In this document: in pieces, positions 57,072 to 59,362 of the stretch | Numbering within the stretch: position 1 is the stretch's first letter | How the letters are laid out: each line of letters begins with the position of its first letter | From: an uncultured Candidatus Saccharibacteria bacterium | GTDB lineage: Bacteria; Patescibacteriota; Saccharimonadia; Saccharimonadales; Saccharimonadaceae | DNA length: 62,932 nucleotides | Assembly: GCA_946406315.1 (NCBI GenBank) | Contig: CAMJKD010000002.1 | Location: 1 to 62,932, forward strand | Direction: 5' to 3' | The notes under the pieces: model-generated | Told to the model about the DNA's origin: nothing | The model's input: the letters and a program-made list of their open reading frames with translations, nothing else | Database searches by the model: none | Position numbers and translations under genes: made by a program

Positions 57072-57142
57072 GCTGAGGTAATTGTATCATTTTTATTGTA
57101 CTCATGCTTTAAAATGCGGGGTTATTTTGGGATATTAGAGGT

Positions 57143-58669
57143 ATGAAAAAAGTGATAAAAATAATGATTAGTGTGATGGTTTTAAGTACGATATTTGCTT
57201 TGTCGTCGTTTGGCGGCAAAGTGTCGGCGGCGAGCTGTCGTGATATTGAATTTATTTATGCGCGCGGCTCTGGCGCGGCGCGGAATGGTTCTGCCGAATG
57301 AAGGCAGTTTAATTCTGCGATGGCAAAGATTGCGAGGCGGCGGGGTTATAGCTATCGTGTAACAGATTTAAGCTACCCCGCTATTGCTGTATCGAATCCG
57401 GCTAATGCGCTTGGTGCAAAGATTAGCGGTGGTTTAGCCTATGCCTTTGGTAGGAGCGTAGATAGTGGTGTTACGAATTTGAAGAATTACTATCAATCGG
57501 TGGTAAGATCTTGTCCCAATACACTTTGGGTGCTTGGCGGCTATTCACAAGGTGCGTTGGTGGTAGAGCGAGCAGTTAAGGTTTTTAAGGCTGCAAAAGT
57601 AGTGTATGTGGGATTATTTGGCGATCCATGGACTTATTTGCCTGAGGGAAAAGGTTTGAATCCGAAGGCTTGTCGAGGACGCGATTTATCAGCTTATCGT
57701 GTCTATGCGCCAGATTGTAAGACTTATTCGGGTTCGTTGGGTATGCAAAATCCTTATGTGCCGAGTGGCTTAAATGGCAAATATGGTCTTTGGTGCAACC
57801 GGCGGGATTATGTTTGCGGTAGTACGCGGTTATTATTTAATAATAGCGGTCATTTAAAGTATGCCGAGTATAATGATTTTGTTTGGATGGCGGAAAAAGT
57901 TGAGAAAAAACTACCTTCTAGAACTCGTTTAGCTACTTTAGCAAATAAAACCGATGAAGAAGGCGATGATGATTTAGATGAAGTTGAAGATTTAATTGAG
58001 GCGCATTTGTCGTCAGATGAATATTTGGTTAGTTCGTCCGGCACTGTTACTTTGGACGCATCGAATAGTTTTAGCCTTGGGCATGAGATTGTGGATTATC
58101 AGTGGAGCGTTAAGGGCGAAGATTTTTGGTCTAGCGGAACAGAGTCGAGTATTCAGCGCGATGTTTTCTTTCCGCGACAATATACGGTACGGTTGAGAAT
58201 TGTAGATGATGCGGGGCGAACGGCGGAAGCTAGTGCGAAAATTGTAGTATATGAGGGTGAGCCGCAGAGTAATGTTATTGCGGCGCCAAATAATGCGACA
58301 GCCGAATATAAAAACGGCGAGATAAACGTACAATGAACCGAAAAGAACCATTATCGGGCGGAATATATCTTATTTAGGATTAATGATGTAGATTTAGGTT
58401 ATCTGCCCGTAAGTGAATATACTGGCACTATTGATGATATCGAAGATATTGATAATACAGTCTTAAAAGTTGCGTGGCTCGATAAGAATTTTGAGGTAGG
58501 TGAGTGGGCGGAAGTTGAAATAACTCGACCAGAGCCGCAAGAGGTAAATATTGAGCCAGTTCAAACTGGACTAGCGCAGCCTTCCATCTCTCTTTTCGCT
58601 TCTCTTTTGGGCGCATTGGGCATTGTTGCGGTGGTGATAATTATAGGTAAAAAATATCTGCCACGGTAA
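57143..58669 (+). pseudogene. Cutinase-family surface esterase interrupted by two in-frame UGA codons
   Basis: A single frame of 509 codons from ATG 57143 to TAA 58669 with TGA at codon 53 (57299-57301) and codon 398 (58334-58336). Signal peptide (1-33), cutinase domain starting CRDIEFIYARGSGAARNGSA, nucleophile S135 in GGYSQGALVV, an Asp-containing NRRDYVCGS and His in NNSGHLKYAE, then a PKD-like domain (about 290-375), an FN3-like segment (YILFRINDVDLGYLPVS) and a C-terminal transmembrane anchor (LLGALGIVAVVIII). Both UGA codons sit where Trp is natural (GSAE-x-RQFN and INVQ-x-TEKN), each one base from TGG, and TGG is used elsewhere in the gene. Either recently decayed or translated by UGA read-through. 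Confidence 0.85.
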
Positions 58670-58702: not shown

Positions 58703-58963
58703 CTAGCACTCAATCAGCGTCCAGGCTAAGGATGCGCTGTCGAATTCCAGTTGGCAGGACATTTTGCCTGCAACACATTGAAAGATGTGCTTGGCGTGGT
58801 TGCCAACGAATTTGATGCGTTCGCTGAGGGTGTCGGTAATTTCTACCTCACTCTCTCCTCGGCGGCGGAAGTATAAAGGTTGACATGGGATTTGGCTGTA
58901 GTTGAACAGCGCCATGACCTCTACTTTCTCGCCTTTTTGAACGGTTTTGTTAATGTTTTGCAT
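58703..58963 (-). CDS. Small hypothetical protein with long leader
   Basis: An 86-residue protein, predicted beta-rich (KVEVMALFNYSQIPCQPLYF, then AGKMSCQLEFDSASLAWTLI) with three cysteines. The family is not recognised. A TAAGGAGT ribosome site lies 8 bases before the ATG. The gene is preceded by about 200-390 bases of non-coding sequence with candidate promoters, so a long untranslated leader is likely. It belongs to the leadered class of small genes in this window. Confidence 0.65.
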   Translation of the reverse strand: MQNINKTVQKGEKVEVMALFNYSQIPCQPLYFRRRGESEVEITDTLSERIKFVGNHAKHIFQCVAGKMSCQLEFDSASLAWTLIEC

Positions 58964-59362
58964 AAATTACTCCTTAAATTGTTAGATTTTTGGAGTCATT
59001 TATGTGAGCCATGTTATTTCGGCTCGGTGCCGCCCGTACAATGACAGAATACGAACGACTGCGTATACTCCGACAATCAGTGACCGAAGTTTGATGTCGT
59101 ACTTATATTATATGTTTCTAAAAGTGCTTACGGTAGTCTTGAAATTGCCGATTTTCTCTAGCATGATAGCGTGGAAAATGTCAAATCGCTTGTGGACAAA
59201 AAATATCACCTTGTGGAAAAGTGTGATAATAATGGGGCAAAAATTGTCTAAAAACGGAAATACATCGCTTGGTAGCGATGTATCTGCGTATTGGTCAACC
59301 TAATAATAGTAGTATAGCATACTATTGCAAAAAAGTCAATGATATTTTGTAAAAGCTGTTTT
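58964..59362. other. 399-base intergenic region with leader and DnaA-box-like sites
   Basis: No ORF is supported. On the minus strand it holds TTGACA (59184-59179) with a downstream TAGAGA-type box and a later TATAAT near 59110, plausible promoters of the 86-residue gene. TGTGGACAA (59191-59199) and TGTGGAAAA (59212-59220) each differ by one base from the DnaA-box complement TGTGGATAA; a perfect copy (59379-59387) lies just inside the TrmB gene. A perfect TACATCGC/GCGATGTA hairpin occupies 59261-59282. No dnaA or dnaN is near, so an origin is not claimed. Confidence 0.45.

What the first reader, a model, noticed from the sequence alone, without database searches (positions are those of the whole stretch)
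57143..58669. Cutinase-like esterase with two UGA codons at Trp positions in an otherwise intact 509-codon frame
The frame continues unbroken through both UGAs to a proper C-terminal membrane anchor. Both stops are a single base from TGG, and Trp fits the context at both. The catalytic Ser, Asp and His, the signal peptide and the PKD domain are kept. Two independent nonsense changes of the same kind, with no frameshift, are either very recent decay or a sign that UGA is sometimes read as Trp here. Elsewhere UGA is clearly a stop (murT, helicase-nuclease), so full reassignment is excluded.
Basis: partly seen in the sequence, partly recalled or inferred. Interest (0 to 1): 0.62.

Follow-up and report, generated by a model that had tools for sequence, protein, structure and literature searches.

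The report
UGA-gated competence genes in rumen Saccharibacteria
In a group of tiny rumen bacteria, the genes for taking up DNA and several surface proteins keep a UGA 'stop' codon inside their coding frame, apparently on purpose, so these proteins can be made only when the cell fails to stop at UGA: a regulatory lock that has not been described before.

Summary
In detail: the 509-codon cutinase frame at 57143-58669 has UGA at codons 53 and 398. It is neither decay nor sequencing error. Codon 53 is UGA in 14 of 30 aligned same-genus homologues (other 16: Trp 8, Phe 6, Tyr 1, Leu 1), in independently assembled rumen Saccharibacteria MAGs, and sequence downstream is under purifying selection. UGA remains a stop in ~12% of genes; RF2 and tRNA-Trp(CCA) are ordinary and no UCA tRNA was found.

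The cutinase belongs to a set. In this genus comEC (18/18 read), comFC (35/38), dprA (20/41) and comM (15/36), plus a pilin-sortase cluster, carry in-frame UGA, with no TAA/TAG inside comFC, comM or dprA; listed comFC and comM of other genera have none. UGA positions turn over in variable 5' regions where UGG never occurs. Most have a -43 CTTATGCTT promoter element. dprA in the window's genome instead shifts +1 at CUU-UGA, the prfB/RF2 sensor site.

Best explanation: slow UGA termination (RF2 limitation) licenses translation of the competence/surface regulon. UGA recoding is near certain; the regulatory gate is likely; its trigger is inferred.

The parts
57143..58669 (+). cutinase-like, secreted, C-terminally anchored protein (508 codons plus TAA) with two in-frame UGA codons
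57299..57301 (+). UGA codon 53, conserved as UGA in 14 of 30 homologues, otherwise Trp/aromatic
58334..58336 (+). UGA codon 398, at a column that is Trp (UGG) in 22 of 30 homologues
57101..57110 (+). CTCATGCTTT promoter-like element, 42 nt before the ATG, shared with comEC, dprA, comM and others
57131..57136 (+). GATATT, -10-like hexamer 6 nt before the ATG, suggesting a leaderless mRNA
   Evidence: sequence; inferred
57545..57547 (+). codon of the predicted nucleophile Ser135 in GYSQG
   Evidence: assignment from cutinase family knowledge
58556..58570 (+). PVQTG, sorting-signal-like motif followed by membrane helix and basic tail (P, V, T, G invariant in 10 homologues)
   Evidence: sorting function inferred

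Best explanation
In this Saccharibacteria genus the DNA-uptake genes (comEC, comFC, dprA, comM) and a set of surface and other genes (cutinase, pilin-sortase cluster, LTD protein, DUF3800, a UvrD-like helicase) are kept behind an in-frame UGA, usually early. When UGA termination is fast, ribosomes stop and no product is made. When it is slow, most simply because RF2 is limiting or termination is perturbed, ordinary tRNA-Trp(CCA) reads the UGA as Trp in most of these genes, and in dprA of the window's species the ribosome slips +1 at CUU-UGA as it does in prfB. A shared promoter element provides the transcriptional part, so expression needs both locks open. SHOWN by sequence: in-frame UGA in these genes, selection on the downstream protein (cutinase, comFC), turnover of UGA position, Trp at the conserved UGA columns, ordinary RF2 and tRNA-Trp, UGA still used as a stop, the shared element, the CUU-UGA shift in dprA. 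INFERRED: that the UGAs are decoded in vivo, that decoding is conditional, that RF2 limitation is the trigger, and that full-length products are made in a competence/attachment state.
For: UGA in comFC in 35 of 38 listed genus homologues, none in the listed rows of other genera. comEC 18/18 with UGA at codons 3-41. dprA, predicted before searching: 20/41, no TAA/TAG. comM 15/36, none listed in other genera. Position turnover on a tree, and at five variable comFC columns UGA 23 times, UGG never, so UGA itself is kept. At conserved columns the residue is Trp: comFC W213 23 UGG/6 UGA, cutinase columns. Downstream dN/dS low. Internal UGA avoids +4U relative to terminal UGA (9/107 vs 19/53, p=4e-5). 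Common element 41-44 nt before ATG. dprA +1 shift at GGG-UGU-CUU-UGA is the only convincing coding +1 shift found in 1.25 Mb; G031 dprA is split at the same place with the same +1 offset. UGA is a normal terminator elsewhere with RF2 intact.
Against: No transcript, protein or ribosome-profiling data. No conserved stimulatory RNA structure at the comFC UGA. Genes with up to 5 UGAs would be nearly silent unless decoding in the 'on' state is efficient. The promoter element also precedes topA, radA, tig and ftsK, which lack UGA, so it is not exclusive to gated genes. Counts are not corrected for phylogeny. G006, G026 and G014 lack UGA in comFC, so the gate is dispensable. The G031 shift site was not read. 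RF2 as trigger rests mainly on one dprA site.
Confidence: 0.62

Rival explanations
1. Constitutive ambiguous decoding: UGA is read at some low fixed rate as Trp in all genes of this genus, an early stage of UGA reassignment; weakly expressed genes simply tolerate it.
For: UGA at Trp columns, dual use of UGA as stop and sense, probably weakly expressed gene classes, TGA only 12% of stops.
Against: Trp is UGG in about 1400 aligned G000 positions with only about ten in-frame UGAs, concentrated in the com/surface set. At variable comFC columns UGA occurs 23 times and UGG never, and UGA is at comEC codon 3-41 in all 18 read; neutral tolerance predicts neither. It does not explain the CUU-UGA shift in dprA.
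Confidence: 0.2
2. Fixed attenuator: readthrough is constant and low, and the UGAs are kept only to hold com and surface proteins at very low or noisy levels, with no sensing.
For: Same sequence facts as the best explanation; no regulator identified.
Against: UGA number per gene varies from 1 to 5 between species, which would change output by orders of magnitude if readthrough were always low; the RF2-type shift site in dprA suggests sensing.
Confidence: 0.14
3. Pseudogenes in decay.
For: Two nonsense codons in the window gene.
Against: Conserved UGAs, almost no TAA/TAG, low dN/dS downstream, many species and genes.
Confidence: 0.01
4. A dedicated decoder (undetected UCA tRNA, tRNA-Sec, or mRNA A-to-I editing of UGA to UGI) makes the codon sense in these mRNAs.
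For: Would allow efficient decoding of several UGAs per gene.
Against: 44 tRNAs found in a 99.5% complete genome, none UCA, and no tRNA-Sec reported in 852 kb; tRNA-Trp(CCA) identical across 29 genomes; conserved UGA columns are Trp/aromatic, not Cys; editing would also permit UAG, which is not used.
Confidence: 0.03

Closest known systems
Bacterial RF2 (prfB) programmed +1 frameshift at CUU-UGA
   Same: UGA termination rate is the sensor; dprA in the window's genome has the same CUU-UGA site with a GGG three nt upstream.
   Different: It sits in a competence gene; prfB of this genus has no frameshift; most other genes use in-frame readthrough. PMC5009743 states that no known organism has replaced RF2 or antizyme frameshifting by regulatory in-frame stop-codon redefinition.
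Leaky UGA readthrough by normal tRNA-Trp (e.g. the phage Q-beta A1 protein; from general knowledge)
   Same: UGA read as Trp by ordinary tRNA-Trp(CCA) with RF2 present; +4A common, +4U avoided.
   Different: Here the upstream product is useless, the UGA is early, and many chromosomal genes of one function share it.
UGA-to-Trp reassigned codes (table 4: Mycoplasma, Hodgkinia, Zinderia)
   Same: UGA read as Trp.
   Different: RF2 kept, tRNA-Trp CCA with a 5-bp anticodon stem, no UCA tRNA, UGA still a stop; the Codetta screen (PMC8629427) does not mention Saccharibacteria and states it cannot detect ambiguous or context-dependent stops.
Engineered suppressor-tRNA leak dampener in E. coli (PMC7969014)
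   Same: A suppressor-dependent second lock that removes leaky expression (abstract).
   Different: Synthetic, uses a suppressor tRNA; here natural and apparently without one.

Membership tests
Cutinase (PF01083) | Profile match over curated cut-off and nucleophile motif GYSQG | tested here: met
   68 vs 25.9 bits; GYSQG
Cutinase (PF01083) | Esterase activity | not testable with these tools
   needs an assay
UGA=Trp genetic code (table 4) | tRNA-Trp(UCA) or 4-bp-stem tRNA-Trp(CCA) | tested here: not met
   single 5-bp-stem CCA tRNA-Trp
UGA=Trp genetic code (table 4) | Loss of RF2 or of UGA as terminator | tested here: not met
   prfB profile over its cut-off in 42 of 45 genomes, SPF and GGQ intact in the 30 read; 42 of 346 terminal stops are TGA
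Selenoprotein decoding | tRNA-Sec present | tested here: not met
   ARAGORN on 852 kb of the genome reports none; selA, selB and SECIS not searched
Programmed stop-codon readthrough | Conserved in-frame stop with protein-level selection downstream | tested here: met
Programmed stop-codon readthrough | Readthrough product observed | not testable with these tools
   needs proteomics or ribosome profiling
RF2-type +1 frameshift cassette (dprA) | CUU-UGA slip site with the protein continuing in +1 | tested here: met
   conserved split in G031
RF2-type +1 frameshift cassette (dprA) | SD-like stimulator 3 nt upstream | tested here: inconclusive
   GGG-UGU-CUU-UGA: spacing right, SD match weak
Natural competence (com) system | ComEC, ComFC, DprA present | tested here: met
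   role in Saccharibacteria transformation from PMC10633639

The most novel reading that the evidence does not exclude
A bacterial regulon, natural competence plus surface display, is switched at the level of the genetic code: early UGA codons, maintained by selection for being UGA and turning over in position, make the genes translatable only when UGA termination fails (by Trp insertion, or by a +1 shift in dprA), so competence directly reports RF2/termination status.
Probability: 0.55. Interest if true: 0.95.

Novelty: new variant of a known kind. Interest (0 to 1): 0.88.

Why it matters
It would be the first natural case known to me of a chromosomal regulon gated by a stop codon, and it ties DNA uptake to translation-termination status in an epibiont. 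It offers an intermediate for UGA reassignment that genome-wide code screens cannot see, and it means standard gene callers truncate or miss comEC, comFC, dprA, comM and surface proteins in a whole genus, so these bacteria could wrongly be called non-competent. It makes a long-discussed possibility, regulatory in-frame redefinition of UGA by RF2 shortage (PMC5009743), directly testable.

Tried and rejected
Decay, sequencing error, full reassignment, selenocysteine, suppressor tRNA: see rivals. A cis-acting RNA structure at the comFC UGA: none found around the UGA (the script stopped with an error after three of five windows). A codon-model scan for more UGA genes gave several gene-end or shadow-frame false positives that I discarded. 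An all-frames protein comparison was swamped by shadow frames until overlaps were filtered (then 32 and 45). AlphaFold model of the cutinase is poor (mean pLDDT 57.5) and is not used. Fisher and binomial values ignore phylogeny and used provisional counts (comFC 36/39, comM 17); the report uses the recounts 35/38 and 15/36.

Full report
Observation. The frame at 57143-58669 (+) reads 508 codons plus TAA and is broken only by TGA at codons 53 and 398. It is a secreted cutinase-like protein (PF01083, 68 bits) with a PVxTG-like motif, membrane helix and basic tail. Of the window's genes only this one carries in-frame TGA.

Relatives. The window lies in a 1.07-Mb, 99.5%-complete genome (G000). 39 of 45 same-genus genomes have a homologue; 17 have TGA inside it, one TAG, none TAA. 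In the alignment of 30, the codon-53 column is UGA in 14 and Trp in 8, Phe 6, Tyr 1, Leu 1; further UGAs fall on Trp columns (331: W18/UGA4; 408: W22/UGA1, in the numbering of the alignment). Named records carrying the closest homologues are Candidatus Saccharibacteria MAGs, several from rumen, from separate assembly projects, so a shared sequencing error is excluded. dN/dS after the UGA is about 0.07-0.1 between close pairs. In other genera of the family no stop is listed in any homologue.

Not a changed code. G000 has 44 tRNAs with one tRNA-Trp, anticodon CCA, 5-bp anticodon stem; the same 76-nt tRNA is identical in 29 genomes. RF2 is found across the genus (over the profile's cut-off in 42 of 45 genomes), and SPF and GGQ are intact in the 30 read. 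UGA ends 42 of 346 genes of G000.

Other genes. Comparing 852 kb of G000 with G035 and G017 left few real in-frame UGAs, and they cluster by function: ComFC (two), cutinase (two), a DUF7601 pilin (one) next to a sortase (two), a UvrD-like helicase, a DUF3800 protein, a GT2; ComM has one in G017. An LTD surface protein has UGA at codon 9, less certain because a downstream start is possible. Family searches over the genus: ComFC 35 of 38 listed copies with 1-3 TGA; ComM 15 of 36; pilus sortase in four. Listed ComFC and ComM of other genera have none (lists truncated). ComEC was flagged, and reading 18 ORFs shows every one with UGA between codons 3 and 41 (PF03772 confirmed for two). I then predicted DprA, the third core component of the Saccharibacteria com system (PMC10633639); 20 of 41 genomes carry TGA, none TAA/TAG.

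UGA is kept as UGA. In ComFC the 5' UGA sits at different columns in different clades (58, 59, 67, 69, 74, 87, 112, 152), mostly where homologues have K, N, E or R; over columns 58, 59, 67, 69 and 74 there are 23 UGA and no UGG. Genome-wide the ratio is the opposite (about ten UGA to 1400 UGG). Neutral tolerance of UGA as Trp does not predict this; selection for having a stop that must be overcome does. At conserved columns Trp is clearly the residue. Internal UGAs are followed by A in 63 of 107 and by U in 9, against 19 of 53 for terminal UGA, the direction expected for leaky sites, since +4U reduces readthrough in bacteria (PMC5289835 abstract). The sites are not independent.

Promoter. comEC in nearly all 18 species, cutinase, comM and G000 dprA have CT(T/C)(A/G)(T/C)GCTT 41-44 nt before the ATG and in most a TATAAT-like hexamer about 6 nt before it, implying leaderless mRNA. 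comFC and the pilin carry the element further upstream. At this spacing G000 has 10 hits against about 1-5 at other spacings; they include topA, radA and tig, which lack UGA, so the element marks a wider class.

dprA. In G000 dprA is split by a +1 shift at CAU-CGU-GGG-UGU-CUU-UGA, continuing as DAGGVTVAILG, which matches G035. CUU-UGA is the prfB sensor site. A scan of 1.25 Mb for +1 shifts at any stop found this as the only convincing coding case. G031 dprA is split at the same profile position with the same +1 offset, so it is unlikely to be an assembly error. Readthrough and this frameshift respond to one variable: how long a ribosome waits at UGA. That is why I favour RF2 limitation as the trigger.

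What is not known. No expression data; the trigger, the efficiency and the physiological state are inferred. Counts are not phylogenetically corrected. The most economical alternative is constant low-level ambiguity; it explains Trp at UGA but not the concentration, turnover or dprA shift. Literature searches found no description in Saccharibacteria, but only open-licence papers were searched.

Noticed in passing
G000:C6:73122-73193 (L095:323-395): tRNA-like gene with an 8-nt anticodon loop (CUGGAAAU, read as 'ggaa') and a mismatched top stem pair; possible frameshift-type or unusual Ser tRNA.
   Followed up: partly
window 58877-59158: Region upstream of a small minus-strand ORF, about 87% identical to G017 in an arbitrary frame with shared stops; looks like a conserved non-coding stretch, no Rfam match.
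   Followed up: partly
G000:C1:42403-42666: Strongly conserved non-coding DNA just upstream of comM, shared with G017.
   Followed up: no
comFC codons 1-40 and 5' UTR (L285-L314): Synonymous sites in the first 40 codons of comFC evolve several times more slowly than downstream, as if an RNA element or promoter overlapped them.
   Followed up: partly
G000:C1:160328, C7:27632, C3:9057, C7:33354: topA, radA, tig and ftsK-like genes carry the same CTTATGCTT promoter element as the com genes.
   Followed up: partly
L011 (G021 cutinase): In-frame TAG in the cutinase of a species without UGA there; the only non-UGA stop among the genus homologues.
   Followed up: no
G039:C16 and C21: Two near-identical tRNA-Trp genes in one genome; the other genomes show one.
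   Followed up: no
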